Positions 5,512 to 43,669 of a stretch of 64,000 nucleotides of DNA are shown piece by piece. The position numbers and the translations under genes are program-made. A model generated the notes under the pieces. That model saw only the letters and a list, made by a program, of their open reading frames with translations. It searched no databases and had not been told where the DNA came from. Every line of letters begins with the position of its first letter. Positions within the stretch are counted from its first letter, which is position 1. The stretch covers positions 6,450,501 to 6,514,500 of the forward strand of contig OX359200.1 of NCBI GenBank assembly GCA_947172415.1, written 5' to 3'. This DNA is from Chondrosia reniformis (Eukaryota; Porifera; Demospongiae; Chondrillida; Chondrillidae).

Positions 5512-5645
5512 GAGTCATACCTTATTGACCCATCCAACTCATTTGGCAACTTGTGTATTACTGGGGTTGCCAAGTATGTACATATCAAATGAACCATGTG
5601 GTGAGCATGTGTCAGGAAAAGGAATTGGATTCTCTTATAATGAGT
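5512..5645 (+). pseudogene. OAS-like last-exon relic 1
   Basis: In the frame starting at 5512 the sequence reads ESYLIDPSNSFGNLCITGVAKY and then hits a stop. It aligns with the last exon of gene A (EPYVLDPANPFNNLYITGVARY). Degraded homology continues to about 5645 (the GNRNWVPLA region). No upstream exons remain. The same relic, with similar downstream sequence, recurs at 7818-7945, so it predates the duplication that produced genes A and B. Confidence 0.8.
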
Positions 5646-6024
5646 TTGCTAAACTAAGCCCATGTATCAATTGCACTGAAGCAAGCAGTTTATGTATATA
5701 ATCATGCATCTTAAATGTATTATAGCAACATTGTAGTGTAAGAATATAATTGATCTAGCAGTTTTGAAAAAAAAACTCATTTTAACTCTCCAAGATTTAT
5801 GTGCCATAATGAATTCTTTCTTCTAATAGATATGCATTCGTACTGATGCTCATATATGTATATAGGTTGTTATCATGACCTTCCTAGAATTGTTTACATT
5901 ATACATTCTTTGTTACCCTCATTTTAATTCATTTGTTAGTATCTGCAGAGGAGAAGGAAATATATTGTCTGAATTAGGGAATTTGTAAGGGTTTCTAATA
6001 GACTGTGACTCAATACCTATTTCC

Positions 6025-6032
6025 CATAAATA
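6025..6032 (+). promoter_or_regulatory. degenerate TATA-like box of OAS gene A
   Basis: The sequence cataaata lies 67 bases upstream of the gene A start. It corresponds to tataaata in the duplicated promoter of gene B (8471-8478), so the first T has become C in this copy, or the reverse. Confidence 0.45.
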
Positions 6033-7604: not shown

Positions 7605-7775
7605 AACTGAACAGTGTTCAGAACTTGCAATAGGACTTTAATATATAGCTGTTATAGGATGTGCACTTTATTAGTATAATGAAAAGCCGTTTGTAATTTA
7701 GTTTAGCTTTTAATAAAACAATGCCTCCTGGTACTCTCAAATCCTTGAGGTGTAAAACTGCTAGTAAAATATAAC

Positions 7776-7817
7776 CTTTTGCATCTCCTTGGCACACTCA
7801 AAGTGTCTCATACCTTC
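7776..7817. repeat. short segment shared with the left flank of the satellite array
   Basis: About 34 bases (ttttgcatctccttggcaca, running on through ctcaaagtgtctca) recur at about 11407-11440, just before the 170-bp array starts. The match marks a duplicated breakpoint linking the 3' flank of gene A and the array edge. Confidence 0.75.
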
Positions 7818-7945
7818 GAGTCATACCTTATTGACCCATCCAACTCATTTGGCAACTTGTGTATTACTGGGGTTGCCAAGTATGTACATATCAAATGAAC
7901 CATGTGTCAGGAAAAGGAATTGGATTCTCTTGTTGGAGAAAGTGA
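7818..7945 (+). pseudogene. OAS-like last-exon relic 2
   Basis: Second copy of the decayed last exon (ESYLIDPSNSFGNLCITGVAKY, then stop), about 2.3 kb from relic 1. The following ~600 bp up to the promoter of gene B also matches the ~450 bp following relic 1. The block (relic plus promoter plus synthase gene) was therefore duplicated as a unit. Confidence 0.8.
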
Positions 7946-8564: not shown

Positions 8565-10848
8565 ATGGCAGCAGAAGCAGAACATGAAATAAATGTTGAA
8601 ACAGCTGATAAGGCCATAGACTTAATTATTAAAAAGCTGCATGTAAGTTGCTTATATTAATTAACATGATCACCTAACTATATATTGTACTGTGAAGGTG
8701 ATTTATTCATATGTAAACATGACATATATATATACACTTAGAATGACTAATATTGTATCGAATACAGAAATTTGGAGAACTAAACTCAAGAGAATGGCCC
8801 TGCCTCTCAAAGAGTGTACCTGCTGAAGTTGTCAAAGGAGGTTCACTTGGACATGGAACTACAGTCCCTGGAAACTTTGATGTTGACCTCATTCTGTTAT
8901 CAAGAGGTAAATTATAGAAATAAATGTATACAGTGAAACCTCAGATAAAGACTATCCCTAAGAAGGTTCACTCTGATCATGAGGCAATTGCTCTTTCAAT
9001 TTTAGCTGATATGCAGTTAAATTAAGGATCACCTCTTCCTATTTTAAGGTGATCTGAAATGATATATTAATTATCATTTTTCTTGGCATTGGAAAAAGAA
9101 CACTTTATTAGGCTGAATTATATGACTTAAGAACCTAACACTACCTCATATTCCTTAAAGATACACATGTATTGTATATAAGTTCTACAGTCAAAGCCTG
9201 GAAAAGATGGTGCTTTTAGTTTATTCTAACTTTATATTCTCATATATAGGTATATGTCAACCATATATCTTTTAATTATAGGAAAGTGATGTTTAAAAGT
9301 TTTAATATGTACATTAACTGTAAGAAGCAGTATTCCCTGTTTATCATCAAATATTATATCAATGACATTGCATGTGCATACATGTATATGCAAAAAACTG
9401 ACCTTTGTAAACTGGTATAATGTGTTCATTCAGGGATCACACCTGAAATGTTTTTGGATCCCAAAAAACCTGGACATGCAGAAGAAATCCTAAGAGAACT
9501 GAATATCTACCTCAACCGAGAATTTGCAAGCTACCAAGAACAGACAACTACCCATCACTCTGTTCAGTTCTCTATTGATGTCAGAGGGATTAAGGTGGAG
9601 ATAGATTTGCTGATTGGACCTTATTGGAAAGACACTCGTGCCTTCTTTACATACTTGAATCGCCTTAAACTACAACATGAACATGACTGGAGAAAATTTC
9701 GAACATTGTAAGTATAAATATATATCTCCACTTGGTTTAAGGAGCTTATAGCAGAATATTAATGCAGACAATGATGTGTGATGTACATACATGGCATGCA
9801 TTATATATACGTATGGCTGTTTGCTATAGGTTCTCGCCTTCTGCTGCAAAATGGCAAACTGAGTATATGTCCAGCAAACCAGACAGGGTAAGAAAAATAC
9901 TTGTGGAATTACACAGGCATTATCATTCATTCATATGTCCATTGATAATTATTGGATATTGCTATACATTTTACTAATTTGAAGCAGATTCTGGATCAAA
10001 ATTGTAAAATTTTAAGGTAAATTTTGATCATAAATATGTAGGTCAAGCAATTGGTGAAAAGGGTAAAGAAATGGGTCAAATCTGTGTATTCTTCTGATGC
10101 TCTTGGGGATGGTAAGCCAACATCCTACCTCATGGAAATTCTTATCATTGAAGCTTGTGAAAGATACTGTAAGAGGTATGGCTGGGATATGGAAAGACTA
10201 GATGTTATTGAAATTGACGATTTTGATAACTTTGCCAGAGAGTAAGTTAATGCAGTAACAGAACATAACTGGCCCAGGAATATTATACATGCATTTTGTG
10301 TGTCTGTATTCATTGTACATACATGTAGTGTTCAGAAAGAGTTGCAGCACATAATAGGAAACCACAGAGAGCTAAGGTATACTGTATTTTTTTACAATTG
10401 CATGGATATATTTATTACAAACTAAATTGTTTACAATTTTTATTGATAATAATATTATATATATATATGTGTAATGCAAGTGTATGCTAAATTGTATATT
10501 TTATGTATATATTCTTTGTATATATATTTGTAGCCTGGTTCTGAAAAATCCATGGTACCAAATGGGTGGAAATGGCCGGTAGGGTGTATGTTTGTACATA
10601 ATTTATTTTATTACCTTTTTATCTCTGTATTACATCCCATGCACAGCTACACCAGCCCTGACTTTGAGCAAGGAAAGCCATACATTCTGGACCCTTCCAA
10701 TCCTTATAACAACTTGTATCGCTCTGGTCTGAAGCCTTTTCAAGCCAGGAATGATTATTGCCACCAGGGGGTGGGGCAGGATAAGTGGGATGTCCTTGCA
10801 GCAAACATCAGAAGATTGGATCTAACCAAGTCTCTTTGGGATGAATAA
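8565..10848 (+). CDS. OAS-like nucleotidyltransferase, gene B
   Basis: Predicted 347 aa, close to the usual single-domain OAS1 length. Exons: 8565-8642, 8768-8906, 9434-9707, 9830-9887, 10042-10241, 10329-10376, 10534-10578, 10647-10848. The active site appears complete: GGSLGHGTTVPG at residues 50-61, D64 and D66 (FDVDLILLS), and a third Asp in VEIDLLIGPYW. The C-terminal signature is PYILDPSNPYNNLY, and the protein ends LDLTKSLWDE. It has one more intron near the 3' end than gene A (the KNPWYQMGG exon), like F and G. Exons of 58, 200 and 48 nt are identical in length to those of A and C. It lies downstream of A on the same strand, with its own TATA-type promoter. Activity and substrate are inferred from family residues only. 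Confidence 0.9.
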
Positions 10849-19228: not shown

Positions 19229-22200
19229 AACCCCAATTAATGTTCCCTCCGGTATGGACAACGTGATCGCCAAAATAGAGGAGACAGTGCGAGTAAGTAT
19301 CCGCTCAGAGAAATAAGGATACCATTGTTAAAGCGGCTATATGTCATGGAATGAAACGATTTTAGTGACTGGCGTTAAACAGAACTACACAGTGACTCTC
19401 TTAGATTTTCTCTTGTTATATGTAGAAATGGGAACATTTGAAGCCCTTACAACCTCAAGAAGACTTTAGGATTATAACGACCGGAGTGCTAGAGCACGGA
19501 GCGGAGGCGCTGCACGAGTCAGATATAGATGTGGTCTTGTTGGCTGGAAGTGAGACCTGGCACTAATATGGACCCCTTATAGAATATTGTACAGTTTACC
19601 AGCGAGGGGCCTCGAGTTAGAGGTACTGGGTTGATGTGGTACAGGGGCGGATTTAGGAGGGCTTTGGGTACTAAAACAATCCCTCTGAGTTTGACTTAGT
19701 GATAGCCATATTCTTACATTATGCCTAATTCTATTGCTCCCTTATAACTCCTTCTTCCAGACCCACCCCATAGGTGGTGGGTGGTGTAGAGTAATCCATT
19801 GGAGGCGTGTCTCTGAGACATGCTACTACAGGGGCGGGGCTCAGTTTGAGGTCTTAAGGGATGTCATTGTACGTACAGATATCTTGTCACTGTTAGTGTC
19901 CTTTGCTTGGAGTGAGTAAGAGGAGCTCGGAGTGAGTAAGAGGAGCTCGGAGTGAGTAAGAGGAGTTCGGAGTGAGTAAGAGGAGCACGGAGTGAGTAAG
20001 AGGAGCTCGGAGTGAGTAAGAGGAGCTCGGAGTGAGTAAGAGGAGCTCGGAGTGAGTAAGAGGAGCTCGGAGTGAGTAAGAGGAGCTCGGAGTGAGTAAG
20101 AGGAGCTCGGAGTGAGTAAGAGGAGCTCGGAGTGAGTAAGAGGAGCTCGGAGTGAGTAAGAGGAGCTCGGAGTGAGTAAGAGGAGCTCGGAGTGAGTAAG
20201 AGGAGCTCGGAGTGAGTAAGAGGAGCTCGGAGTGAGTAAGAGGAGCTCGGAGTGAGTAAGAGGAGCTCGGAGTGAGTAAGAGGAGCTCGGAGTGAATAAG
20301 AGGAGCTCGGAGTGAGTAAGAGGAGCTCGGAGTGAGTAAGAGGAGCTCGGAGTGAGTAAGAGGAGCTCGGAGTGAGTAAGAGGAGCTTGGAGTGAGTAAG
20401 AGGAGCTCGGAGTGAGTATACGATGTACATTTGGTGTTGCTGGTGGATGGATAGAGTTAGGTAATGCAATGTATAAAGTGTGAGTTAAGGTCTATGGCTA
20501 AAAATGTTCCTGTGAGCTTCATGATTGACATATTGTGTGGCCCATAACAGTAATTCAGTGATATATACAGTCAGTAGCTGCTCAAACTGATTAGATAGGC
20601 ATAAGATACATACATACGTAGGTGTGTGGTGAAATAGGTTGTTTGTTCAGTGTATGAGATGTATAGTGCTGTACATAATGGATTGTCTTTAACTTTGTTT
20701 ACATTTTCAATCCCTTTCAACTCCACTTTGTTTCATTTCCTTCGTTCTGACTTTGCAAGAATTTAAAACTTTTAAAGAGCCTCCTTTTTATGTTGACAAA
20801 CAGGATAAGCACAATTGTATGTATATTAATAAGGAAAATAGTGGAATTTAAGGTATAAAACCAATATGTAAAGCTTTGAATGTCAAAATTACAGTCAGAT
20901 GATGTATTTCTTAGTACTTGTGTATAAATACTATTTATATGGTTTTTATGTTTACAGACATAACAACTGACATGCTGTTAGATAAAAAGGAATCGACCAA
21001 ATTAGCAGAGAACCTGGCAGAGCATATTAAATCTTCTCTTGACCAGGAAAAGGAAGAAGGATCATTGACAAATCTTGTGTTTAAAGAAAGACAGCACTCA
21101 AATGTGTGCCCCGGAGTGACATTTGTGATGTCAAATCCAAGTAGTGGCCGCTCAACTGGTTTTAGTGTACTTCTCTGTCCTTTCTGGAAGATCCAAAAGA
21201 ATTTCTTTGATTTTCTATCAGATTTAAAGAGGAAAGGTGACGGAGAGTGGGAATATTATCAAAGCTTGTGAGTGTTACATACAGTTAAAGAGTATGTGTG
21301 GCCTATAGGTGTAGATAACTCTAGTAACTCTAGATGACTCCTTTATCCTCCACTAAAGCTCTCACTAGGTTTAGTTCCCTATGAGCCCTTTACTATAGAA
21401 TGTAGTACGTACGTAAGAGTTTAAATTAGATTACTCATGTAGTAAAGTGAAGCTAAAAATGGCAACCATATTCCAATGTACAGTGAAACCAGTCTAATTT
21501 GGTCAGCTTGGGGACAGCTAAACTTGGCCTTATTAGAGAGGTGGCTGTATTATAGAAAGCTATCTTTGGAAAGGGTCATCCTTCGGCTTTGGGAGTGTCT
21601 AGAGATGCAGTTTTTTGGTTCTTCTTTCTGCCAAAAGTTTTGACCCTGGGGGTCTTCTTCAGTGACTGGCAGAAAGAAGAACCAAAAAAACTACGTCTCT
21701 AGACACTCCCAAAGTCGAAGGATGACCCTTTCCAAAGATAAGTTTAACGCAGTTAGAAGAAATCCTTATATATGTATAGGCCATTATATACGTATATATA
21801 TAATTTTTTTGGACTTTAAGAAACCACTGTTGAGACATTATTACACTATTGCCCATTATTTGAAGGTGATTATCAATTATTATGTATCATTTGATTAATT
21901 TTATTGTTCAGGTTTTCTCCATCGGCTGCCTTATCTCAAGTCCAGTACATTCTGGATCAGCCAGACCAGGTACAAAATGGTGGATTGGTGGCTACAATAT
22001 ACAGTGTACTATCTCTTTGTGTATCAAGTGATGTTAAAACACAACGGTTTGCTTTAGCCCTTGAACCTAAACCTTTACATAAAGCCAAAACAGTTTTAGT
22101 ATTTCAAATGTTAATTACAGCTAACAGTAATTTAATTATTTAAATCAAATCCACTTAGTGTCATTAAGCCAGGTTATGCATGGGATTATTTATTGAAAGT

Positions 22201-26754: not shown

Positions 26755-26799
26755 TGCACAGCTAACACAAATAACGAACTTTACCTTTATTCAAGTACA

Positions 26800-29040
26800 A
26801 TGGCTACATCCACTAACAGTCACTCTCCGAAAGAACCACAATATCTTAGGTTAGTGCAGGAAATGCCTATTTCTGAACTGGATACCAATAATTAATTGAA
26901 CCTTCAGCAACTGTTAACTTAGAGTTTAAAAGAGTTTCAAGCAGACAATGAGAGACAACTAGAGCGAATCATCATGATATTTACGCGATGTAAGAAAAGA
27001 AGTTAGACATTTGAAGAGTTTAAGTTTAAGAAGTTGAAAAGTAGTGCATGTGAATCTCGGGCGGTATACTCGCATACACTTTAAGAGAAATTTCATATAG
27101 TATGCAGTTAAGTCGAGGACGTATAGCGAGTGTTGCCTTAAATCTTAAATTTCAGTGACAGACTGCCATTTGTCAGTGCACTTTTGATACGACCTTTTCC
27201 ATCTTTGTTTACAGTGTTTCTCTCACAAGTATGGACTTGGATATCCTTCAAAAACACATTGTGGATGAAGTATCCTTCAAATGGAAGGAGATCGCAACTG
27301 CTTTGGGATGTTATCCTAATAAAATAGAGACAGTTAACGCGAACCATGTTAAGACGGGAGATAGCATGTTGAAAATTTTAACTGATTGGCTAAGAGAAAG
27401 CAAAGGAACAGGAGACAAACCTAGAACACTCAAAACTCTATATGATGTGTTGATTGACCGAGATTGTAGAGAAGAAGCAGAGAGGATGCTTCAAGCAGTA
27501 GCAGAACGTGGTGAGCTAATTAAAGATTAGGCATGTAAATGTGTATATGACTTGCATGTATATAATTGATATAGGAGTGGACATGAATCTCTTTTTTAGT
27601 ATATATTACAACTGCTTGACAATATTAATGTTCTGTTCTATATATACCATTCATGCAGATGCACAGAGCAGCACATCAACTGATACCATCAATTCCCACA
27701 CCACAGACCATTCTCATGTCCAGAGTATGATGGTGAGTCTTTACTATTTGCCATTGGTATACATTGATATTCTAATACATGCATTTTTCATATTTTATAT
27801 ATATTGACACTGTAAGACACTTTTTATTTTCGCACGAGTACAGTTTAATTTCCTTTTTCCTTCTCACTTAAATGATTATATATATATGTCATAAAAACAA
27901 ATAACACCTTAATTGCACTGCAAGGTATATTTTGTTTCATTGTTTTCTTTAAACAGTATCTACTTGAATGTACATGTGTACTGTGCATATTCCTCAGGGA
28001 ATAGTTTATATAGTATATATAAGTTGTATACATTTTTGATGTTCTAATATTATATACATGATATAATAATGAAATATCTATTATTATAGAGAATTGGCAC
28101 CACAATGAAGCCAAATGACATCTGGAGTCTCCCTGATATGAAGATTGCAGTTTCTCATGCCACTGCTATTTTGGGAAAAAGAAAAATCTTTCTCTGTGGA
28201 GGCAAATGTAATTATGACAAAAATGCTAATGAAAAGATAGTTCAAGTGTTTTGCATCGATAAAATGTTATGGGATACATTGCCCCCAGCACCAATCAAGC
28301 TTTGCACAGCATTTTTTGCTCAGGAAAAGTTGACACTCTTAGGAGGAATTGAATGTTCTATTAATAGACTCACCAACAAGCTGTTCACATTTCTGGAGCA
28401 TGAAAATAAATGGGAAAATATCTATCCAGCTATGGATTTGGCAAGGCATCGTCCAGGTGTAGTACAGCATGATAATCTACTCATTGTCGCAGGGGGAAAG
28501 GATGGGGTGACAGTTCATGGTACGATAGAAGTGTTGAATGTAGATACCAAGCAGTGGTTTAGACCAACATTCCAACTGCCATCTTCAATGTGGATCATTA
28601 ACTTTTCGATTATCCGTGGCTTTGTGTACATTTGTGGTGAGGATAAAAATGATAATGATCCAAAACCTTGTGCTTGGAGATTACCATGGAGCAATTTTCA
28701 AAATGTAGCTAGAAATGATGCACGCAATGATCCTGAAAAATGGGAAAATATTAAAGAAGAAATGCCATTAACTATGCCTTGTCTCCCATTTAACAATGGC
28801 ACTGCAGATCGAGTAATTGTAATCGGTGGGCGTGATTCTAAACGTACACCGCAGTCAGATATATATTCCTATGACCCCAACCGGGATGAATGGCTGCAAG
28901 TAGGTGCTTTATCTGTAGCAAGGCTGAGGATGTGTGCCGCTCATATTTCCAAGAACCTCATTTTTGTTGCCGGTGGATACACAAACCCAAAGAAAGCCAG
29001 TGAAACATTAAAAACAGCAGAGATTGTCTGCATCCAGTAA
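26800..29040 (+). CDS. death-domain plus Kelch-repeat protein
   Basis: Predicted 456 aa. Exons: 26800-26849, 27215-27510, 27659-27732, 28090-29040; all phases agree. Residues ~24-112 look like a death-fold domain (FKWKEIATALGC ... MLKILTDWLRES ... LKTLYDVL ... AERMLQAVAE), the adaptor type used in apoptotic and innate-immune signalling. A short Ser/Thr/His linker follows. The rest is a Kelch beta-propeller with about five or six blades: FLCGG, LTLLGG, LLIVAGG, VYICGE, VIVIGGR and IFVAGG strands with W/Y positions between. The Kelch part is in one exon and is closely similar, even at nucleotide level, to that of the kinase-Kelch gene at 38975-40774. The first exon is inferred from the TATA box and phase. 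A start at 27231 inside exon 2 is the alternative. Ligand and partners are unknown. Confidence 0.82.
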
Positions 29041-29671: not shown

Positions 29672-31830
29672 ATGGCTACAAAGACTAAAGAAGAAGAAAA
29701 ACAAAAATTAAAGGAAAGCAAAGCTAGAGAGGCTGTGTACAATGTTTCAGAGGAGCTGAAAACGGTATATAATAGGTTTCACTAGCTATTTAACATAATC
29801 TTTTACTTTAGGTCTTTCCGTATCAATTTTAAAGGGTCTAAAGGATGTGAGGAAGCTCCAGAGAAGTGAATATCCTGAGCTTTCACAAGTCAAACCTTCT
29901 GAGATAGTTGTGGGAGGTTCCTTAGGACATGGAACCATTGTTCCTGGAAATTTTGATGTTGACTTGGTAATCTTGTCAAGAGGTACGTTATAGTTTCAAT
30001 TGATCATGAGGCATACCTTTATACATGTACATACGTATATAAATATTACCTGTATACATACGTACATTATTTACATTATACTAACTTCAGAGATACATGA
30101 TCAATGTTTTATTTTGTAATCATGAATTCAGAATAATAAAAATAGCTACATATTTACTGTATATATATATAATCCTATATATATATAGCTCAAATTACTC
30201 TGTAATTCATATATACTCTTACATATTCTACATGCAGATCTAACCATGGAAGACTTTCTTCCAAAAGATGGAGATACACGAGCAAAAAGAGTTCTTAAAG
30301 AACTTCAGAAATTCATTGAAAGAAATCTGAAAGTGCAGACTAAGATGAAAAGTGTTCGTACCATATTCTTCACTAAAGAGGAAGACGGGGTCCCTGTTGA
30401 AATAGATTTACTAATATCCCCCTACTATGAGGATCCAGACGACCTCTTCATGTGTCTATGTAAATTTCGACTGAATAACCAAGATGTAGAATGGGATTTC
30501 TTTTATCGTACTTTGTAAGTTAGAATCCCAGAATCAAATCTCAGGTTTCATTGAACATGAAACCTGAGATTTGGTCCTGTGAATATGTTCAGCTTAGTGT
30601 GCATACATGCATATGTATGCATGTAATATATATATATACCTCTAAGACTGGTACCTTGAGGTACCATAATAATAATAATTACATACATATGGTGGAATCA
30701 TTCTTTGTATATATGTACATCACAGGATTAAATGTTTTCAGAAGGCATGAAACCTATTTGAAACTCTTTGTGCTAATAGATTAATTTCACGGCTTTCAAA
30801 TTTTAACAGCCCCCTTCCAAATTTTATACATACCTTGAAACCTGGCTGTTCACATATACTTGAGCACCCTTGGAAACCTGGCTGTTCTAATATATTTCAT
30901 GCCATATGAAACCTGAAATTCGATCCTGTGATATACCTACATAAAATGTATACGCAGGCTCTCCCCTTCTGCTACAAAATGGCAAACCAGTTACATTAGT
31001 GATCAGCCTAACAGAGTGAGTTATATATATAAGAAAAAGGTATCCTTATTCTTTATGTATATAATTTTTTTAATCTTCTGGGTATATTACAAAAAGGCAT
31101 TAGAAATAGTTAAACGTGTGAAGAAATGGAAGAAGAGCACCCTTTTCAAGGGGGGAAATGGCTGTCCCACATCCTACCTTTTGGAAGTACTGGTAGTTGA
31201 AGCATGCAAAAACTACTGTGAGGAAAATGAGATTAAAAATCTTGATGAAGTTGACATGTCTAAAACTGATTTCAAAGAATTTGCGAGAAAGTATGACCAA
31301 TATACAGATATGTTACACTGTATATGTATAGTGCATAATTATCACATGTCATTGAGTACAGCTTATTTGAACTTTCTATTTATTTTATATAGCATTCAGG
31401 CCAGGCTTACAAAATTTATAAAATCTGGCCGTGGAGATTACAAACCATTAAAGTACAGTTTACATTCAAAATTATTTACCTGGGCCCACAATGAATATAT
31501 AAATCCTGCTACGTTTATGCTTCCAATAGGATATACCCTAAAAATCCATGGTATCATCCGGCAGGCCCAAATGAAGAAGGGAGGTATAGCCAGCTGATTT
31601 GAAGGGAAACATGCATGCTGTTTTATGGTTAATACTTTACATCCATCAGATATAAGAAAGCTGATATGGAGTTGCCATATATTCTTGATCCTGCTAACCT
31701 CTACAATAACCTGTATCAATCAGGAATAAAAGCATGGGATATCACTGTTGAAGAAGCTTGGAAAATATTTGCTGATAAATTTACTTCACCAGAAACAAGT
31801 CCTGACCTGACTGAGTCCCTCTTTAATTAA
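29672..31830 (+). CDS. OAS-like nucleotidyltransferase, gene F
   Basis: Predicted 354 aa. Exons: 29672-29764, 29835-29982, 30238-30514, 30958-31015, 31097-31290, 31393-31452, 31530-31583, 31650-31830. Catalytic residues are intact: VGGSLGHGTIVPG, FDVDLVILS and VEIDLLISPYY. The C-terminus reads PYILDPANLYNNLYQSG, with Leu in place of the usual Pro. It is most similar to gene G, sharing the 148/277/54-nt exons and the phrase DFLPKDGDT. A 190-bp piece covering intron 2 end and exon 3 is copied without change at 33738-33927. The 240-bp-arm palindrome begins 155 bases after the stop. The exon 5 acceptor (ttacaaaaag) is weak but is supported by phase and length. Confidence 0.88.
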
Positions 31831-31985
31831 AAAAATAAGAAGTTTAATTTAACTTGGCTTTCTCCAAGTTAACTCATGATGCATAAGTTTATAACATTTA
31901 TTAGCTAGGGTATATACATACATACAGTTATAATGTTAACAATTTTGTTAGCTTCAGTGTATGAATAACAGATCATATATATATA

Positions 31986-32483: not shown

Positions 32484-33623
32484 AAGATCTCAAAATAACG
32501 TCTTAGACAAGAGAAATTTGCCGAAAACCATGATCTCTTAATTAAAAAATGGCGTCCGAGAAGACCACAATTTTCGCTCTTCACAATTAACATGCTTATT
32601 GTAGAGCGCATTCAGATTTAGGGCTGTCTATTCCCTAGTTCCGAAATATTTATGACGATTTATAACTAGTACGTGCCCGCATAAGTTCGCATATTAGCGC
32701 TAGTCTATTCAATAAAAGAAGAAGAAGAAGAACAAGAAGAAGAAGAAGAAGAAAAAATGAATTTTGGAAGTGGGTCTATTCCTAGTTAGCCGCTTTTTGA
32801 ACGCTATAGAGCGTGTAGAGCGTCGAAACATGTTTTGACATTTAGGAAAGCGTGCATTAATCGCTGCAAATAACCGAATATAACCGAAAATCGCTTCGTT
32901 GGCGATTTATGAGGTGTTAATTGCTAATACATTGGATAGGGCGGCCATTTTTTTTCCCGGCCATTCCTACTTAGAGAGTACTACCGTACTCTCTGATATA
33001 TTGTGTACAAGTTACAAAATGGTCTCTAACCCTGTTGATTATGCCAATGCATGCAACCAACCGTCGGTGTTCTTAGCTCCCTCACAAGGCAAATCAAATC
33101 TGCTGTGGTTATTAGCTGAGACCCCTTTAATACTGAAGCCTTTGTTGATATATGGCATGCAGATGCATCATCTTCAGTCTATACTAAGGTGTGAAAAGGT
33201 AATTGGTAGGCCATGTGTTCTACCTTGCAATTGGATGATCTGTATCAACTACTACTCTCTATGCAGTAGTTGAGGATTTCAAAGCCTGCAACAGTACTAG
33301 TGTGACTAAAGTCTTGTACTGTTTAAAATACTGATTATCCTAGGGGTCACTTGGATCTCTTTAAATTTGTAACTTGCACTGTGTAGCTAGTACTTGATTG
33401 TAATTTTAATATTACATAGTCACTTGGATCTCTTAAATTTGTAACTTGTACTGTGTAGTACTTGATTGTAATTTAATATTTTATATATTTGCTAGTAACT
33501 TGCACTGTGTAGTGTACTTGAGTGTAATTAGCTAACAAAGTATTTCACTATACTTATAGACATTCGCTATAAGCAATTTCGTTACTGTATGTAGTACACA
33601 TGGAAAACGTACTAACATGGATA
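32484..33623. other. unassigned region with a (GAA)n stretch and an unknown 124-codon frame
   Basis: A GAA-rich microsatellite lies at about 32715-32757. An open frame at 32899-33273 has no recognisable domain, and its neighbours show no matching splice structure. Two near-repeats of gtcacttggatctcttaaat with downstream similarity lie at about 33348 and 33418. I see no supported gene. Confidence 0.5.
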
Positions 33624-34091
33624 AGAATAAAGCCTAGTTGAAAGTCAGCAATATGAATTTACTAATTCTGGACGTTTCGACCCAGAGGTCTTCATGCATC
33701 AGCAATATATGAGGAGTGGGAATACAATTCAGTATAAATATATACTCTTACATATTCTACATGCAGATCTAACCATGGAAGACTTTCTTCCAAAAGATGG
33801 AGATACACGAGCAAAAAGAGTTCTTAAAGAACTTCAGAAATTCATTGAAAGAAATCTGAAAGTGCAGACTAAGATGAAAAGTGTTCGTACCATATTCTTC
33901 ACTAAAGAGGAAGACGGGGTCCCTGTTAGAATAAAGCCTAGTTGAAAGTCAGCAATATGAATTTACTAATTCTGGACGTTTCGACCCAGAGGTCTTCATG
34001 CATCAGCAATATATGAGGAGTGGGAATACAATTCAGTATAAATAGGAAATTAGTAAATTCATGTTGCTGACACTCAACAAAGCTTTATTCT
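33624..34091. mobile_element. terminal-inverted-repeat MITE carrying a captured piece of OAS gene F
   Basis: The right part (33928-34091) is a MITE-like element with ~45-bp imperfect terminal inverted repeats (agaataaagcctagttgaaa against the reverse of the right end). Its first 117 bp also occur, identically, at 33624-33740. Between the two copies lies 33738-33927, identical to 30209-30398 of gene F. The centre contains cgtttcgacccagaggtctt; a related motif is at ~63455-63475. Confidence 0.85.
33738..33927 (+). pseudogene. captured fragment of OAS gene F (intron 2 end plus 5' part of exon 3)
   Basis: 190 bp identical to 30209-30398, including the splice acceptor and the coding sequence from LTMEDFLPKDGDT to EEDGVPV. 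It stops before the third catalytic Asp. Three bases (ata) are shared at the left junction. It is a fragment only and cannot encode an enzyme. The lack of any difference indicates a very recent copy, or a sequence-assembly effect. Confidence 0.9.
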
Positions 34092-35424: not shown

Positions 35425-35580
35425 CCTGGGAATCTTTGATCTTCTGTGAACCCCTGGCTCATACACATATGAATAATCTAATAAACCATGTTTCAACATG
35501 CTACATCTATGTACACTTTAGAATAAAAGGCCCATAGGGAATCTATACGTATGTATAGTGAGAGCTTTGGATGAAGATAA
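35425..35580. mobile_element. dispersed repeat, family R1, reverse copy
   Basis: It contains gtgaccctgggaatctttgatc and, further on, ggcccatagggaatctat ... gagctttggatgaagata. This is the reverse orientation relative to the copies at 2395 and 60678. It overlaps the left end of the segment duplicated from the gene C 3' region. Confidence 0.65.
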
Positions 35581-35639
35581 CAAATAATATATACAGGTGC
35601 AAAGTCCCACCAAAGAGTAATTACAATCCAGAAATCTAC

Positions 35640-36518
35640 CAGTTATTCCTCCCAGATTAATTTAAGGTTACCATTCACATTCAATTAATGGGATTTTCCA
35701 ATTTTTGTGTGTTAGGATTGATTTGGAAGAACATCTAAGTGACTATCCAATGGCTAATACAAATGGTCCCTACATACTTGACCCTGCCAATCCTTTCAAC
35801 AACCTGTACGTGTCAGGTGTTGTGAGATGTGACCCCGAGCATCACTTTGGTGACTATGGAAACGGAAATGGCAACTGGCAATCATTTGTAGATAAAGTCA
35901 CTTTGGATCTTACAAAATCAGAATGAACATTGGAACCAGCTACCACAACACTTCTTTAGCTGTTCAATAAATCATCCCACTTTGTATTCTAACTTTTTTC
36001 ATATTGTATTTGTACCTTTTCAGTATATCAGGTTTATATATTGCACAGGTTATATATTTAGGTAAATTAAGTCTAAGCTAAATTAGGTACACTTGGTGTA
36101 TTTCGAATGAAGGACACATGTCTTCTCATACAGAAGTACATATGAGATTAATCAACGTCAACGCTTTGATAATCATCATTTGATTTTACCCGCCCCATTC
36201 AAGTCTCCTGAGGATCACATGAGCTAATGGGAGCTAGTAAATGTATTATAAACAGAGTAGCACACTCAGACTTCCATCATATACCATACTGATGCGTCCT
36301 AATAAGAAAGAAACAGCTGTCTATGGCTTGATCATCATGAATGACTAGAAGAGGAGACTTATGCTCCAGTTAACTTTAGTTCCACCCACACATTGTGCTC
36401 CTCAGGGGTAAATCAATGCATGATGACAGTCTTCTCGTATATATATATAATACACTAACTACATATATTATATTAGATGCAGAAATGTGCTGAGTCACCT
36501 GACACTGTTTACATAACC
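35640..36518 (+). pseudogene. duplicate of the last exon and 3' flank of OAS gene C
   Basis: The acceptor (ttag at ~35716) and the exon through 35926 match gene C exon 7 (PYILDPANPFNNLYVSG ... LDLTKSE), with three bases missing in the FVDK-TLDL region, so the frame stays open. Homology continues 3' to about 36518 and 5' to about 35466, pairing with about 22972-24014. No upstream OAS exons accompany it, so it is a dispersed exon copy rather than a gene. Confidence 0.85.
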
Positions 36519-37551
36519 ACTGATTCACAGAATTCCAATATATATATATATCCTCTTCACCTACGTATATATCTCTAATACATCACCATCATACAACATT
36601 ATAAAGTTATATACACATGGACTTGTGTAGACTTATAAAAGTTTATTAATTGCAGGCCTAACAGAAAGTGATACAAGTCTCAGCAGGTTCATAAAGCTCT
36701 AGACAGCTATCTCAAACAACGCTTTGGAAGCTCTGAATATATATACACTTGTGAACAAGTAAACCATCATAGCATCAGTTTCAAGCTAACTGACAGATAT
36801 GGGCCGAAGGAAATAAAGTTTGACCTTCTTGCCCGACCTTACTTTGATTCAGAGAGGGGATTAAACAGCTTCCTGAACACTCTGCAAAGAAGAAGCCACA
36901 TCTGATGTCACAGTAAGTACAGTCCTAACATACATATGTATATGTATATAAATCCTTGTTACAGTATAGTACATATATATGGACACGTAATATTAATCTA
37001 ATAGATATACAGCAGCTGCAGCCTATTTTCAAAGAGAATTCATTAAAGAAACCCCAGATGACGTAATTCCTATCAACAAATGCATAATAACTATTATTTG
37101 GATTATTTAGAATAGAATATTTCTGAAACTTATTGGTATAGAGCTTTGTCATTAACATTCTTTTTTCCATAGGGCCAGATAGCTGTTTCTGGTAATTCTA
37201 CCAACAAATCTTGCAATATTCTCAATTGTATTACTCTCTAAGTCCTTAACTCTAAGTACTATATAACTTGCACTGTATATACGTAGGTGTCATGTGTGCA
37301 CTTGTATAAACATTGACATACATATATACGTATATACTTGGGTTATTACAAGTGAACCACAAGTGTTTTGTTTTTATTACTCTTCATTTAAATAGATTTA
37401 ACAAACCTATTCTAGTAGGGTTGACTAGAAAGGTGCAATGACACCCCAATAGTTACCCTGTACTGCAGCTGCATACTGAGCTCTGCTTCTGAGTGATGGA
37501 TTCAATGTGCTTTAACTCATATGCCATGGTCCAGAAGTCCTAATAGGCTTC

Positions 37552-37680
37552 ATATTAAAAAATAAAAAAAATAAAAAAAAACAGAAAAAGTAAAAAAAAA
37601 CAGAAAAAATAGAAAAACTAAAAAAAGGAAAAAAAAAGAAAAACTTTTTCAGCCCAAGGAAAAAGTTTTTTTGTTTTCAA
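37552..37680. repeat. A-rich low-complexity tract ending in a small hairpin
   Basis: Runs of A broken by single T, C or G (e.g. aaaaaacagaaaaagt), followed by aaactttttcagcccaagga and aaaagttt, which can fold back. No function is assigned. Confidence 0.7.
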
Positions 37681-37714
37681 AGTGTTCTTGCCTATAGTGT
37701 TTTAAGATATTTTC

Positions 37715-37890
37715 TACCACTACTATGGATAAGGAATCGCAGATGGTTCATCTTTAGTCTTTTGAGCGTCTAGAGACACAGTTTTGTTTCTTGAAAATCG
37801 GACATTTTAACCCTGGGGTCTTCTTTAGCAACTACATGATACGTGTGTCTCTATACACTGAAAAGACTAAAGATAAACCATCTCAAAGAT
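37715..37890. mobile_element. MITE with gatggttcatctttagtctt termini
   Basis: Inverted termini (gatggttcatctttagtctt and its reverse complement near 37865-37890) enclose ttttaaccctggggtcttct. Half-elements with the same terminus lie at 42620-42692 and 43175-43235, and a relative at 52725-52870. Confidence 0.75.
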
Positions 37891-38079
37891 AACAATAGTT
37901 ATAATTCATATGCATACAAACAGATATATACACAGTATAGCATTGTTAAGTACAAAGGTGATATACTATATTACGCCAAACCCAGCAAAACCTTTAATTG
38001 TCCCTTGGCTGGTTTGGCATAATATACTCCAGAGATTTTATATATATAGTATACATATATGTATGATCATGAATAATCT

Positions 38080-38275
38080 AACATCACCTTTTTCCTACAT
38101 ACATCCTATGCCTACTCTGTAAAAGTCTATGAGAACTAAACCTGGAGAGAGCTTGAATGAAGCTGCTCCAGTGGGCCACTGGGCCAAACAGCTATTTCTG
38201 GGAATTCCACCCTTCATTAGTGACCCTGGGAATCTTTATCTTCTTCTTGATCTTTTGTGAATCCTTGCAATTGTA
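38080..38275. mobile_element. dispersed repeat, family R1, reverse copy
   Basis: Contains gggaattccacccttcatta and gtgaccctgggaatctttat, the reverse complement of the core of the copies at 2395-2640 and 60678-60915. Confidence 0.65.
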
Positions 38276-38974
38276 CGTATGTATACATGTCCATTTGCAA
38301 TTATTATAGGTAAAAGAACTCATCAAAAGGGCAAGCACTGGAGAAATAGGATCTTCCCCAAAGGAATGTCAGCTGATGGACGTCCTAAATCCTATCTGAT
38401 ATCAGTTTTAGTGATCTCATCTTGTTGGGACTAAACTTAAAAACCTTTCGGACCTGAGGCATCAGAACTTTGCATCCAAAGGTTGAATAATGACTTTTTA
38501 ATTAGTCTAATAGTATTAAAGGTTTCCATATATATACTCATAGATTAGTTAAACTCTAGAATCAAAATAACATTGTATTGTGAATAAATCTGGTGATATT
38601 GTTGCACTATTTATTCTACTGTTTGTATGTATCTCATTGCCAAATGTGATGTTTCTGTAATGAATGGAATTTCTGGTGATGCTTATGACTATTAGGATTT
38701 TCTAGAAGTTTTATACATACAGTGCAATAATGTATATACACATACACACATATATAAATGATGTCATCCAATCACCTGAACTGACCACAGATGGTCAGAG
38801 TGTCTGTTGTTTATTTTAGAGAAAACATAATAGGCAAAATGGGTCTTAAGATTCCTGGAAATAATTAGATTCATATGGGAATGCATTCTTACCAAGGATG
38901 CAGGTTACAAACTACAAGGAATCTGATATATATACCTAGGGCTGCATTATAGAAGATTCATTTTGCTAGTTTTG

Positions 38975-40774
38975 ATGGCAGAGAACAATCAAACTAGTTA
39001 CCAACTACCACAAGCACCACCTTCGTTGGAAATATCTGACACTGAACTTGGGCGAGGGGCTTATGGTGTAGTTTACAGAGGAACATTCGAAGGTCATCCA
39101 GTGGCAGTGAAATCTGTACATGATGAAATAGCTCGAGGGAAGCCACTCCAAGATTTTCTGCAGGAATGTCAGCTAATGAATTCACAGTTACTAGACCATC
39201 CCAACATTGTTAAATGCCGTGGTGCGTTCTTAGACAAAGCAAACAAGCCAATCTTGGTGATGGAACTCCTGGATCAAAACCTGAGGGATTATCTTGATCA
39301 ACATCGTGATGATGTGCCGTATGAGAGACAGATTGAAATTTGCCTTGCTATTACAGCAGCCCTTGAACACCTTCATCGCCGAGAGCTTGTTCATCGTGAC
39401 GCAAACGACAAGAATGTCCTAGTGACGGCTGACGGTAGGATAAAAGTTAGCGATTTCGGACAATTTTCTAAGCTATCCTACTCAGCAGAATATATGCATA
39501 CAGTGGCGCCTGGAAATATTCTGTATATGCCGCCTGAAGCCATGGATGGTGACGCCGAGTCTCGCTATAACAAGAAAATAGACGTGTTTTCCGTTGGCGT
39601 CCTTATGCTCCAAATTGCCACTCAAAGCCAACCCACAAGCGGCCTCATGAAAATCGGAAGCCAAGAAGAGCGCGAGCGACGTAAAAATGACTTGAAGAAG
39701 CTTGCAGATAATCATCCACTGAAGCCACTGATCATCAATTGTCTAAAGAATGATTATCATCAACGGCCCACCATGGAAGGGGTACATGCTCGTTTGTTGA
39801 AGATGGTAGACATGCCGGATCCTACTGGTTTACCGCAATCCAACGACTCAACACCATTAGTAGCTCCTAGCATGCCTATTCCCGTCTCCCACGCAACAGC
39901 TTCTGTCCATGAGGGTAAAGTCTTTGTGAGCGGAGGAATTGGTGGGACAGAGAAATCAAAGAGAACTGTTCAAATCTATTGCACACAAAATCACTCTTGG
40001 GACACTCTTCCTCCAGCACCAATGAAACTTTCTCCAGCAGCTGTTTTAGAAGGAAATCTAACTCTCCTAGGAGGCATTGACTGTTCAACTGATAACGTTA
40101 CTAATAAAGTGGTCACATACATAGAAAATAAGAGAGAATGGCGAGCAGATGTTTATCCAGCAATGCAGTTGGCAAGACACCGACCAGGTGTAATTCAGCA
40201 GGACAATCTGCTTGTTGTGGCTGGGGGAAGGGTTGAGGGTAAAGTCAGTGACAACATTGAAGTCATGAATACTGATGCCAAGCAGTGGTTTACTATTGCA
40301 CTCAAGCTTCCAGTTCCAATGTGGATCCCAAACATGACCATATGCAACAACTATGTGTATCTTTGTGGGAAAGATCAGTCCAACAACAGCCCAACCTCAG
40401 AATCCTGGAAGGTGCCATGGAACCGTTTTAACAGTGTTTCCGGATATAACACTGAAGTTGGTGTTACTCCATGGCAAAGCATTGCAAAGATGCCAGTAGT
40501 CCTGCCTTGCATTCCATACTGTAGTGGCATGACAGATCAGGTGATAATAGTTGGTGGGCGCAACATCGAGCATACCCCAATACGTGATATACACCGCTAT
40601 GACTCCAACCGGGATGAATGGCTGCCCATAGGTGCCCTATCTGTAGCAAGGCTGAGGATGTGCACCGCTCTTATTTCCAATGATACCATATTTGTTGCTG
40701 GTGGATACACAGATCCAGAGAATTGGAAGGAAAAGATAGATGTAGTAGAGTTTGCCACTCTAAACGAGATGTAG
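38975..40774 (+). CDS. TKL/RIPK-like protein kinase fused to a Kelch propeller
   Basis: 599 aa in a single uninterrupted exon; the ATG at 38975 is the first in frame. Residues ~19-285 form a protein kinase: glycine loop GRGAYGVVYRG, VAVK lysine, HRDANDKN catalytic loop, DFG, and MPPEA at the end of the activation segment. The catalytic Asp, Asn and metal-binding Asp are present, so activity is likely. The loop has AND where HRDLK kinases have a Lys, which is unusual. The C-terminal half is a Kelch propeller closely similar to that of the gene at 26800-29040 (e.g. NRDEWL, ALSVARLRMC, FVAGGYT). A tatatata stretch precedes the start by about 45 bases. It sits between the decayed OAS gene and OAS gene G on the same strand. 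TKL/RIPK placement is by general motif look only. Confidence 0.9.
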   Translation: MAENNQTSYQLPQAPPSLEISDTELGRGAYGVVYRGTFEGHPVAVKSVHDEIARGKPLQDFLQECQLMNSQLLDHPNIVKCRGAFLDKANKPILVMELLDQNLRDYLDQHRDDVPYERQIEICLAITAALEHLHRRELVHRDANDKNVLVTADGRIKVSDFGQFSKLSYSAEYMHTVAPGNILYMPPEAMDGDAESRYNKKIDVFSVGVLMLQIATQSQPTSGLMKIGSQEERERRKNDLKKLADNHPLKPLIINCLKNDYHQRPTMEGVHARLLKMVDMPDPTGLPQSNDSTPLVAPSMPIPVSHATASVHEGKVFVSGGIGGTEKSKRTVQIYCTQNHSWDTLPPAPMKLSPAAVLEGNLTLLGGIDCSTDNVTNKVVTYIENKREWRADVYPAMQLARHRPGVIQQDNLLVVAGGRVEGKVSDNIEVMNTDAKQWFTIALKLPVPMWIPNMTICNNYVYLCGKDQSNNSPTSESWKVPWNRFNSVSGYNTEVGVTPWQSIAKMPVVLPCIPYCSGMTDQVIIVGGRNIEHTPIRDIHRYDSNRDEWLPIGALSVARLRMCTALISNDTIFVAGGYTDPENWKEKIDVVEFATLNEM

Positions 40775-41245
40775 TACATTAACTAGTATATAAACTTTAC
40801 CTTTTAAGAACTATATAATGTATAGTGATATAAATTGAACTTTAATTCATATATATCTTAAAATGTAGTGTTTCAGTATACTATATATTTGTATACATTA
40901 TTTTAATGATATTCATGAGACTAATGAACACATTGGTGTTTAGAGTAGAATTTTTACTGTTAGCTATACATGGGATATGTACTTAATATACATGTGTGGG
41001 TATTTCAAGGAAACTGAACGGATTCAAATGTTTTAAATTTCCTTTCTGAGAATCACGCTATCATAACTATATAGTAATACAGTAGAAATTGAAATTCCAT
41101 GTAGCAATGCCAGTTCCTAAGAATCATGGGATGGGAGCACCTATAAAGGGATTTGTTTCTTGCTTTCTGTAAGCCTACTAACATTATAAGTACCTATATC
41201 AATACTCTGTACTTTCAAGACTAATACGTATATATATATACCACC
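40775..41245. other. intergenic, kinase-Kelch to gene G
   Basis: AT-rich; carries the gene G core promoter (tataaagg at 41142-41149). No gene is seen. Confidence 0.6.
41142..41149 (+). promoter_or_regulatory. TATA box of OAS gene G
   Basis: The sequence tataaagg lies 104 bases before the ATG at 41246. Confidence 0.55.
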
Positions 41246-43669
41246 ATGGATACGAAGGAACTCGAAGATAGTTATGAACTAACTGTAGGAGATGCAAAAA
41301 AAGCTGTCTGTAAAATATCAAAAGAATTGAAAACTGTAAGTAATAATCAGTGTAGGGCACATATACTGGTACAGTGTTATACTTTTCACATAGCCTATGC
41401 ATTAAGAGGGAGCAACTAGTGGTCATAACCAGCTGTCCTGGGTTCAATTCCCACTTTCATGTTTTTCCCTCTTCACTATGTTTGAGACTGATTACAATTA
41501 CTTGTGGTTTGATTAACACTTCGATTATTCATTAAATGTAACATGTACAGTACTAGTGTATATATATATTCTATATATATTCAGCAGTGATCTACATGTG
41601 CATGTAAAACCTTATGTAGTTGTTGTATAAATACTTTAGTTAGCTAACTAGTCTATTATATACATACATATATACATACGTATATGTGACATTGTCTACA
41701 TATATGTATATATAGCTGTAATGAATATATATACGTACATAGATACATGTACAAGTACAAATATAAATGATTCTTTCCTTGTTCCTTGCAAGGATTTAAA
41801 GAAACTCAGGACAAATCAAAGTTTTCAGTATCCTGAGCTTTCACAAGTCACACCTTCTGAGATCGTTGTGGGAGGTTCCTTAGGACATAGAACAACTGTT
41901 CCTGGAAAATTTGATGTTGACATGGTAATCTTGTCAAGAGGTTGGTTTGTAAATCAAAAGGAAGGGTCAAGATCATGATTTAATTCATATTACCAAATAA
42001 ATTTCCCATTCACGTATAGACCTTAAAATGAATGACTTCCTTCCAAAGGATGGAGATACAAAAGCAAAAAAGGTTCTTCTAGAACTTAAGAAATACATTG
42101 AAAAACATCTGGGAGTGCAGCCTGAAATGAAAAGTCATCGTACTATCTTTTTCACCAAACAAGTAGGAGTCCCAAAGCCTGTTGAAATTGATCTGCTAAT
42201 ATCTCCTTACTTTGAGAATCCAGATGAAATGTACTTGTGCCTCAGTGATTACAGGCAGTGTAACAGTGTTGAGTGGGACTATTTTTATCGTACCCTGTTA
42301 GTGATAAAATTTAAACTGGTAATCTTGTTAGGGCTTAGCTGTATTTATAAAGAATACATAGCTGTATTCTTCAGGTTCGTAAACACAGACTATATATGTA
42401 AAATTAAACTAGCCTAGAACCATATATCACATGCAATAGGTTGTTTAGCTTCATAGGGCTATATTTTACTGTAGTTGCCATTTATAAGTCCTAGTTTTAA
42501 TATTATATTTTATGTTCTACAGGTTGTCACCTTCAGCAACTAAATGGCAAAAGGATTTTATTAGCAAGCATGTGAAGCCTGGAAAAGTGAAGAATATTCT
42601 AACTGCGTTAGATTTATCATTGAGATGGTTCATCTTTAGCCTGTGTCTCTAGATGCTCAAAAGACTAATTATAAGCCATCTCAAAGATATATGTATGTAA
42701 TTATATATAAAATCTTACACCTATAGGTGAAGGATTTGGTAATAAGCTTCAAAAAATGGAAAAAGATTGCTTATGAGGATGGCTTAGGAGAACCAGCATC
42801 TTATCTTTTGGAAGTGATCCTGATTGAAGCATGCCGCGAGTACTGCAAAGAGAATAAAATTAATGACCCTCATGAAGTACATATGTCTCCAACTGAAAAG
42901 AGAAAGTTTGCAGAAGAGTAAGTGATTTTAAGTTTTAGACAATAATGACATGCATAGATAATAAATCTTTTTATGCAATCACAGCATACAAGAAAGAGTA
43001 ACTGCCTTCATCATCCACCATAATACCCTGAGGTAAGAAATTATAATAAAGAGTAGTATATGTTCCCAGAAACATTTATACATATCTGGTCCAGTGGAGT
43101 AAAAAACAAAGACTAGACTGTCCTCAACCTCTAGTTCTAGAATATCGACTATCAGGGTTACATTTTAGGTATATCTTTGAGATGGTTCATCTTTTAGTCT
43201 TGTCTTTTAGAGCATCTAGAGTTGATTCTTTAGAAAAAATCCTTATCATGTAATGTTAATTTTATCCAAACAATCACTGTTTTAATATGTGTATTCTTTG
43301 AAATCATTATTGCAACATTTCTTCAGCCATATTACAGAGAATGAATGGTATTGTCAAGTCAAACCAGGAGAAAAAGGCAGGTATGAACATCATTGTGTAC
43401 TTTAATATAGACAAGTTTAAGCAATCAATTATATAATATAAATACATATATACGAGTTTGTGTCAATGACCATATGTAGGTATAAGAAGTGTGATTTTGA
43501 TCATGAGCAACCATACATCCTTGATCCTTCAAATCCTTATAACAACCTGTATTATTCTGGAATAAAACCTATTAATGGCAGTTCTAGCAAAGCATGGAAT
43601 CTACTTGCTGAAAAAATGACCTCTCCAGAGTTGAAGCCAGATCTTACCAAATCTCCTTTTTCTGATTAA
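41246..43669 (+). CDS. OAS-like nucleotidyltransferase, gene G
   Basis: Predicted 353 aa. Exons: 41246-41335, 41793-41940, 42020-42296, 42523-42586, 42727-42917, 42985-43032, 43327-43380, 43480-43669. The ATG is in a good context (ccaccatgg). The core reads VGGSLGHRTTVPGKFDVDMVILS, so a Gly in the loop after the GS motif is Arg here (HRT against HGT elsewhere). Both DxD aspartates and the third one (VEIDLLISPYF) are present. Exon 4 is 64 nt rather than 58, adding two residues. The C-terminus has PYILDPSNPYNNLYYSG. It is the closest paralogue of gene F. The Gly-to-Arg change may lower activity. Intron 1 holds a SINE; introns 4 and 7 hold MITE pieces. Confidence 0.9.
41395..41530 (+). mobile_element. 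tRNA-derived SINE, plus-strand copy in gene G intron 1
   Basis: It contains actagtggtcataaccagct, then a clear B box in cctgggttcaattcccac. A tail follows with cttgtggtttgattaacact, matching the tails at 26240-26390 and 54060-54235. Confidence 0.75.
42620..42692. mobile_element. short MITE remnant in gene G intron 4
   Basis: tgagatggttcatctttagc and the reverse-complementary end taagccatctcaaagatat match the termini of the element at 37715-37890. Confidence 0.65.
43175..43235. mobile_element. MITE terminus in gene G intron 6
   Basis: tatctttgagatggttcatc followed by ttttagtctt matches one terminus of the element at 37715-37890; the other end is missing. Confidence 0.6.

What the first reader, a model, noticed from the sequence alone, without database searches (positions are those of the whole stretch)
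5512..43669. OAS-like gene cluster with embedded death-domain-Kelch and kinase-Kelch genes: a candidate innate-immune locus
Seen: six OAS-like genes, all on the plus strand, and inside the cluster two genes on the same strand that share a closely related Kelch propeller fused to two different signalling modules, a death domain and a protein kinase. Known: OAS enzymes make 2'-5' oligoadenylates, which vertebrates sense through RNase L; death domains and RIPK/TKL kinases are immune signalling parts. Inference: the Kelch proteins could be partners, effectors or sensors in a sponge OAS pathway, in place of RNase L. I know of no described system with this combination.
Basis: partly seen in the sequence, partly recalled or inferred. 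Interest (0 to 1): 0.9.

Follow-up and report, generated by a model that had tools for sequence, protein, structure and literature searches.

The report
Sponge OAS array with Kelch signalling genes
The only place found in this sponge genome that encodes 2'-5' oligoadenylate synthetases (antiviral-type enzymes) also holds two related genes that join a propeller-shaped Kelch domain to an immune death domain or to a protein kinase; they are candidate partners for an enzyme whose receptor in sponges is unknown, but no functional link has been shown and a chance neighbourhood is still the likelier reading.

Summary
The window is chromosome 12 of the sponge Chondrosia reniformis and holds the only OAS locus found in its genome: five full-length genes (324-354 aa) with intact catalytic aspartates, one diverged and one broken copy and stray exons, all on plus. 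Inside lie a spliced death-domain-Kelch gene (DDK) and an intronless kinase-Kelch gene (KK).

New evidence: the two Kelch domains are sisters (48%, support 99/97), each 0.5-0.6 kb upstream of one of two sister OAS genes (g5/g7, 58%). Collinear matches at an offset of about 12 kb show that a block with a Kelch and an OAS gene was duplicated. DDK's death domain is closest to the sponge's DEATH-NACHT (NLR) type; KK's kinase belongs to a large scattered kinase-Kelch family. No RNase L was found; the one KEN gene is IRE1.

Against a pathway: dozens of kinase-Kelch genes lie far from OAS, and 2.5% of random 38-kb windows hold a Kelch relative. Synteny in other sponges, expression and ligand binding could not be tested. 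I read it as an OAS array that captured and duplicated one immune-type Kelch gene; a 2-5A sensing role stays open at about 12%.

The parts
5509..5589 (+). stray OAS last-exon remnant
   Evidence: blastp with g1 last exon, 61% over 23 aa
6092..7604 (+). OAS gene g1, 324 aa, 7 exons (6092-6163, 6385-6490, 6565-6841, 6908-6965, 7030-7229, 7288-7335, 7391-7604)
   Evidence: spliced model, all GT-AG; GGSLG, DAD and the third D
7749..7895 (+). stray OAS last-exon remnant
8565..10848 (+). OAS gene g2, 347 aa, 8 exons (8565-8642, 8768-8906, 9434-9707, 9830-9887, 10042-10241, 10329-10376, 10534-10578, 10647-10848)
19426..23415 (+). diverged OAS copy g3: weak P-loop exon 19426-19545, exon 3 in 20915-21268 without the third Asp (by eye), exons at 21913-21969, 22460-22657, 23233-23412; probably inactive
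   Evidence: tblastn exon hits, reading by eye
24600..26157 (+). OAS gene g4, 349 aa, 7 exons
26800..29040 (+). DDK, death-domain-Kelch gene: exons 26800-26849 (tentative first exon), 27215-27510, 27659-27732, 28090-29040
   Evidence: in-frame splice chain with donors GTTAGT/GTGAGC/GTGAGT
27228..27510 (+). death domain of DDK
   Evidence: Pfam Death E 4.3e-6, 27.2 bits against cut-off 22.6, on 27228-27527; NLR-type
28090..29040 (+). Kelch exon of DDK, predicted phase-0 acceptor as in kinase-Kelch genes elsewhere
29672..31830 (+). OAS gene g5, 354 aa, 8 exons
   Evidence: corrects
33769..33933 (+). stray copy of g5 exon 3 (98% protein, 99% DNA)
35467..36518 (+). duplicate of 22972-24007 (81% over 1104 aligned positions), including a copy of the last exon of g3 (35744-35920): left end of the duplicated block
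36672..38431 (+). broken OAS copy g6 (exons 3, 4 and part of 5)
38975..40774 (+). KK, intronless kinase-Kelch gene, 599 aa; kinase about 39041-39796, Kelch about 39842-40771
   Evidence: one open frame; HRD and DFG present by eye
41246..43669 (+). OAS gene g7, 353 aa, 8 exons; sister of g5 (58%)

Best explanation
This is the single OAS gene array found in Chondrosia reniformis, grown by tandem and block duplication. A Kelch gene from the sponge's large Kelch families came to lie between OAS genes. A block of about 12 kb holding that Kelch gene and a g5/g7-type OAS gene then duplicated. One Kelch copy now carries an NLR-type death domain, spliced on in front of the Kelch exon; the other carries a TKL-like kinase and has no intron. 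Working model: the OAS enzymes make 2'-5' oligonucleotides without needing dsRNA, as reported for other sponges. The two Kelch proteins are intracellular immune-type signalling proteins whose propeller binds a partner and whose death domain or kinase relays the signal. They sit with OAS through duplication and linkage, not because they are shown to share a pathway. Shown: gene content, sister Kelch pair, sister OAS pair, block collinearity, NLR-type death domain, scattered kinase family, no RNase L found. Inferred: direction of the module exchange, all functions, independence from OAS.
For: OAS matches only here (21 of 21; 23 of 23 at E<=10). Collinear matches between the two halves: 22972-24007 with 35467-36518 (81%), Kelch DNA 66%, g5/g7 exon 2 94%, exon 3 74%, exons 5 and 6 71%, offsets 11.6-12.5 kb. 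Kelch pair is a clade 99/97 in a tree of 35 rows; 53 residues are shared by the pair where over 70% of 27 other family rows have one other residue. 12 of the 15 best death-domain matches have a NACHT match 1.0-5.3 kb downstream on the same strand; 17 of the 40 best examined, out of 105. 43 of 59 kinase matches have a Kelch match within 4 kb downstream. A phase-0 border before the Kelch exon is predicted in DDK, C1 and C14 genes.
Against: Random 38-kb windows hold a Kelch relative in only 2.5% of draws, two or more in 1.2%, and a related kinase in 1.0%, so even a single capture is mildly unlikely. The close death-domain-then-Kelch order was not seen elsewhere (0 of 105 within 4 kb; 8 of 105 within 8 kb). 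The Kelch genes stayed open and beside OAS through duplication and long divergence, which is also what selection for linkage would give. KK's kinase is 58% identical to a C14 kinase while its Kelch is only 33% (C1 against C14: 45% and 35%), which fits a more complex history than one captured gene.
Confidence: 0.6

Rival explanations
1. The Kelch proteins are the sponge's 2-5A effectors: OAS makes 2'-5' oligonucleotides, the Kelch propeller binds them, and the death domain (DDK) assembles NLR-type signalling platforms while the kinase (KK) phosphorylates targets. They replace RNase L.
For: Only OAS locus found; no RNase L found, the one KEN gene matches IRE1; NLR-type death domain; close death-domain-Kelch order not seen elsewhere within 4 kb; Kelch-OAS pairs duplicated as a block; C. 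[quoted passage not shown]
Against: Kelch-kinase relatives are scattered far from OAS. The pair's Kelch domains show no shared basic character that a polyanionic ligand might need (pI 5.9 and 8.5; 27 relatives average 6.5, range 4.8-8.8), a weak test. No expression or binding data.
Confidence: 0.12
2. The Kelch proteins act on the OAS proteins themselves, as adaptors that bind or phosphorylate OAS and so switch enzymes that lack dsRNA control.
For: Sponge OAS is reported to act without dsRNA (PMC6307210 passage), so another control is conceivable; co-duplicated Kelch-OAS pairs DDK-g5 and KK-g7 would suit matched partners.
Against: No direct evidence; the same scattered family.
Confidence: 0.1
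3. The Kelch genes have nothing to do with immunity; they are chance members of expanded sponge Kelch families with roles in cell adhesion, growth or turnover of proteins.
For: At least 125 Kelch matches outside the window; Kelch propellers are general protein-binding modules (recalled).
Against: The death domain is closest to NLR-type death domains, and family expansion into arrays is typical of immune genes (recalled).
Confidence: 0.18

Closest known systems
Animal 2'-5' oligoadenylate synthetases (OAS1-type; sponge OAS subgroup)
   Same: P-loop GGS motif, catalytic aspartates, OAS1_C domain, one-domain length; PDB matches are OAS1, OAS2, OAS3 and OASL
   Different: 30-58% identical to each other; [quoted passage not shown]
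Sponge NLRD receptors (DEATH-NACHT-LRR)
   Same: DDK's death domain is closest to death domains followed by NACHT
   Different: no NACHT match in the window; a Kelch propeller follows the death domain
Kinase-Kelch gene family of C. reniformis (arrays on C14 and C9, others on C4, C1 and elsewhere)
   Same: KK has the same module order; its kinase is 58% identical to a C14 kinase
   Different: KK's Kelch groups with DDK, not with C14 Kelch (33%); KK has no intron between the modules, as have two other open frames on C6 and C13
Vertebrate OAS-RNase L pathway
   Same: the synthetase half
   Different: no RNase L found; the only KEN match is IRE1

Membership tests
OAS | OAS1_C domain above the curated cut-off | tested here: met
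   4 of 5 drafts (g2, g4, g5, g7) above; incomplete g1 draft 16.0 against 19.9 bits; completed models were not rescanned
OAS | GGS P-loop and three catalytic Asp | tested here: met
   invariant GGSLG, FDxD and one further D in 5 of 5 aligned genes; which Asp are catalytic is recalled; g3 lacks the third by eye
OAS | makes 2-5A | not testable with these tools
   activity of C. reniformis extracts is in the literature (PMC2852836 passage), not tied to these genes
OAS-RNase L pathway | RNase L present | tested here: not met
   one KEN place in the genome (2 candidates scored, exon-wise search, prokaryote controls silent); of 31 PDB rows at E<=10 for its sequence 16 are IRE1 (E 1.2e-26 to 2e-7), the other 15 unrelated (E 0.68 or worse), none RNase L
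NLR (for DDK) | NACHT domain | tested here: not met
   0 of 101 NACHT matches lie in the window; Pfam on the two DDK pieces shows Death and Kelch-type families, plus two others below cut-off
NLR (for DDK) | NLR-type N-terminal death domain | tested here: met
   12 of the 15 best matches are followed by NACHT within 5.3 kb
kinase-Kelch family (for KK) | kinase followed by Kelch | tested here: met
kinase-Kelch family (for KK) | Kelch of the same lineage as its kinase relatives | tested here: not met
   KK Kelch is sister to DDK (99/97, long branches), C14 Kelch 33%
   no RIPK among the best 60 of 1519 PDB rows (EGFR, Nek7, CDK4/6, B-raf, JAK2 and others); the rest were not shown

The most novel reading that the evidence does not exclude
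The OAS locus of this sponge encodes an RNase-L-free 2-5A signalling system: a Kelch propeller lineage private to the locus reads OAS products (or the OAS proteins) and passes the signal through two interchangeable front ends, an NLR-type death domain and a TKL-like kinase, each paired with its own OAS gene.
Probability: 0.12. Interest if true: 0.88.

Novelty: new variant of a known kind. Interest (0 to 1): 0.48.

Why it matters
Sponges have active OAS, yet no RNase L has been found in those examined, so what reads the products is open. C. reniformis is named in the literature as a sponge with very high OAS activity. The finding gives its OAS gene set and two concrete, genetically linked candidates, so the question becomes testable with two recombinant Kelch domains. 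It also shows one Kelch lineage fitted with two different signalling modules inside a duplicated block.

Tried and rejected
Family search PF10421 over the whole genome rang nowhere, controls included, so it was not used; Mab-21 likewise. Relatives of OAS in viral and prokaryote contigs and of KK in viral contigs: pattern matches (26, 57, 7) but none confirmed, so no stray sponge DNA helped with synteny. Promoter-type motifs in 600 bp upstream of seven genes: nothing consistent; ISRE-like sites one each for DDK and g7, none for the other five; no NF-kB-like site in any. A single-transcript reading of DDK-g5 and KK-g7 (no AATAAA in either gap) was not adopted; a rough estimate in my head, not run, says the absence is unremarkable. 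Death domain against PDB gave only weak, mixed hits. That KK is simply a member of the C14 array was rejected on the Kelch tree. Limits of that tree: 33 rows besides the pair, drawn from the loci fetched for the best-scoring matches only (not the C2, C7-array or C9 Kelch), six of them second cut-outs of one and the same gene; KK, DDK and the C1 row have long end branches (2.9, 3.0, 5.7). The random-window figures are post hoc, use some chromosome lengths rounded as in PMC12181767, and counts that the tool calls lower bounds: 73 of 552 candidates scored for KK, 127 of 224 for the DDK Kelch, 144 of 144 for the death domain, 101 of 139 for NACHT. I used 59 kinase, 125 Kelch, 105 death-domain and 101 NACHT rows (the window's own rows dropped); for the death-domain-NACHT count only the 40 best of 105.

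Full report
Identity of the window. The window is G000:C12:6450501-6514500 of a 117,379,552-base genome in 15 contigs. Contig lengths seen (C1 10.41, C4 8.95, C7 8.46, C12 7.52, C14 6.75 Mb) match the chromosome table of the kidney sponge Chondrosia reniformis, assembly odChoReni1.1, to within 0.01 Mb (C4 is 8.96 there; PMC12181767, passages).

OAS genes. Exon comparison inside the window and splice modelling give five full-length plus-strand OAS genes of 324-354 aa with GT-AG borders throughout: g1 6092-7604, g2 8565-10848, g4 24600-26157, g5 29672-31830, g7 41246-43669. The models rest on homology and splice consensus, not on transcripts. GGSLG, FDxD and one more Asp are invariant in the five. 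Pfam OAS1_C passes its cut-off in 4 of 5 drafts; g1's incomplete draft does not. A profile of the drafts matches only OAS chains in the PDB (7 of 7 at E<=0.01). g3 (19426-23415) is diverged and by eye lacks the third catalytic Asp; g6 (36672-38431) is broken; stray exons lie at 5509, 7749, 33769 and 35744. Two whole-genome searches with OAS proteins found 21 and 23 matches, all in this cluster.

The two Kelch genes. DDK (26800-29040) joins a death domain (E 4.3e-6) to a Kelch propeller through in-frame splices; its first short exon is tentative. KK (38975-40774) is one open frame of 599 aa with a kinase (PK_Tyr_Ser-Thr 6.2e-45; HRD and DFG present by eye) and a Kelch propeller. The best 60 of 1519 PDB rows for KK are a mixed set (EGFR, Nek7, CDK4, B-raf, JAK2 and others) without RIPK, so RIPK is neither shown nor excluded; TKL-like is the most I can say. 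The Kelch domains are 48% identical to each other and at most 39% to any other Kelch match listed. In a tree of 35 rows, drawn from the best-scoring matches only, they form a clade with support 99/97, with long branches.

Block duplication. The order OAS end - OAS - DDK - OAS g5 is repeated as OAS end - broken OAS - KK - OAS g7 at an offset of 11.6-12.5 kb: 22972-24007 matches 35467-36518 (81%), the Kelch exons match at 66% DNA identity, g5/g7 exon 2 at 94% over 114 bp, exon 3 at 74%, exons 5 and 6 at 71%. g5 and g7 are sisters by identity (57.9%, all other pairs 30-44%). The gaps DDK-g5 and KK-g7 are 631 and 471 bp. The uneven identities suggest later conversion or unequal rates.

Where the modules come from. 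Of the 15 best death-domain matches elsewhere, 12 have a NACHT match 1.0-5.3 kb downstream on the same strand (17 of the 40 best examined, of 105), the DEATH-NACHT arrangement of sponge NLRD genes (PMC12909245, abstract and passages). A death domain followed by a Kelch match was found within 4 kb in 0 of 105 cases outside the window and within 8 kb in 8 of 105, seven on C2 and one on C5; on C2, 16 Kelch matches are followed by a death domain 3.5-6.6 kb downstream. Kinases related to KK are many: 59 matches outside the window, 43 with a Kelch match within 4 kb downstream; all lie away from the only OAS locus found. KK's kinase is 58% identical to a C14 kinase and 42% to a C1 kinase, but its Kelch is 33% and 35% to theirs; C1 against C14 gives 45% and 35%. 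So kinase and Kelch of KK do not tell the same history and a module exchange is likely; its direction is unresolved. A phase-0 border before the Kelch exon is predicted in DDK, C1 and C14 genes. Two other open frames, on C6 and C13, also hold kinase and Kelch without an intron.

Is the neighbourhood more than chance? In 200,000 random 38-kb windows, 2.5% held a Kelch match, 1.2% two or more, and 8.5e-5 held two Kelch, a kinase and a death domain; 5.2% held at least one match of the kinase, NACHT or death-domain sets. These figures are post hoc, rest on lower-bound counts, and the two Kelch genes are one entry plus a duplication. I read this as mild evidence at best.

RNase L. One place in the genome matches the KEN nuclease family. 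Of 31 PDB rows at E<=10 for two of its exon pieces, 16 are IRE1 (best E 1.2e-26), 15 unrelated (E 0.68 or worse), none RNase L. Four sponges examined earlier also lacked RNase L, and sponge OAS is reported to work without dsRNA (PMC6307210, abstract and passages). C. [quoted passage not shown]

Literature on the combination. Searches of the held library listed no paper that, from title and abstract start, describes a Kelch gene in an OAS locus. In the three papers whose text I searched for Kelch only PMC6208332 used the word, for Kelch-motif genes of two sponges that were down-regulated after microbial signals. PMC6993872, which holds Kelch, Amphimedon and kinase domain, I saw only in the listing. 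Most subscription papers are not in that library.

Verdict. The pathway claim is open: the parts are immune-type, linked and co-duplicated, but relatives are scattered and no functional evidence exists. I give 0.6 to an OAS array that captured and duplicated one Kelch signalling gene without a shown pathway, and 0.12 to the 2-5A effector reading.

Noticed in passing
window 31981-32488: Near-perfect inverted repeat (245-nt arms, 99%, 18-nt loop) about 150 bp behind the stop of OAS g5; it is a young high-copy foldback element (39 other near-full-length places at 98-100%, with only 40 of 1390 candidates scored). If transcribed it would form long dsRNA next to an OAS gene.
   Followed up: partly
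window 11521-18022: Satellite of 38 copies of a 170-bp unit inside the OAS array.
   Followed up: no
window 19905-20418: Minisatellite, 25.7 copies of a 20-bp unit at 98%, within the diverged OAS copy g3.
   Followed up: no
G000:C14:595362-1137392: Array of 27 kinase matches related to KK in about 0.54 Mb, many with a Kelch match downstream: an expanded sponge kinase-Kelch family.
   Followed up: partly
G000:C2 about 1.87-3.1 Mb: Many Kelch and death-domain matches interleaved; 16 Kelch matches are followed by a death domain 3.5-6.6 kb downstream on the same strand. Whether these are single genes is unknown.
   Followed up: partly
G000:C5:4781021-4787800: Death domain, related kinase and Kelch in a row on the minus strand: possibly a death-domain-kinase-Kelch gene.
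   Followed up: no
G000:C7 about 0.1-2.77 Mb: Large NACHT gene arrays.
   Followed up: no
window 26158-26799, 29041-29671, 40775-41245: The short same-strand gaps around DDK and behind KK lack AATAAA (the DDK-g5 gap has one ATTAAA), unlike the stretches behind g1, g2, g5 and g7; not tested for significance, but worth a look in RNA-seq for read-through transcripts.
   Followed up: partly
window 29871-29984 and 41829-41942: P-loop exons of g5 and g7 are 94% identical in DNA while other exons are 71-74%: likely local gene conversion.
   Followed up: no
window flanks: Left: RBM39-like RRM gene on minus. Right: vWA gene at 49206-49997 on plus, cadherin-like exons (below cut-off) near 62502-63998 on minus.
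   Followed up: no
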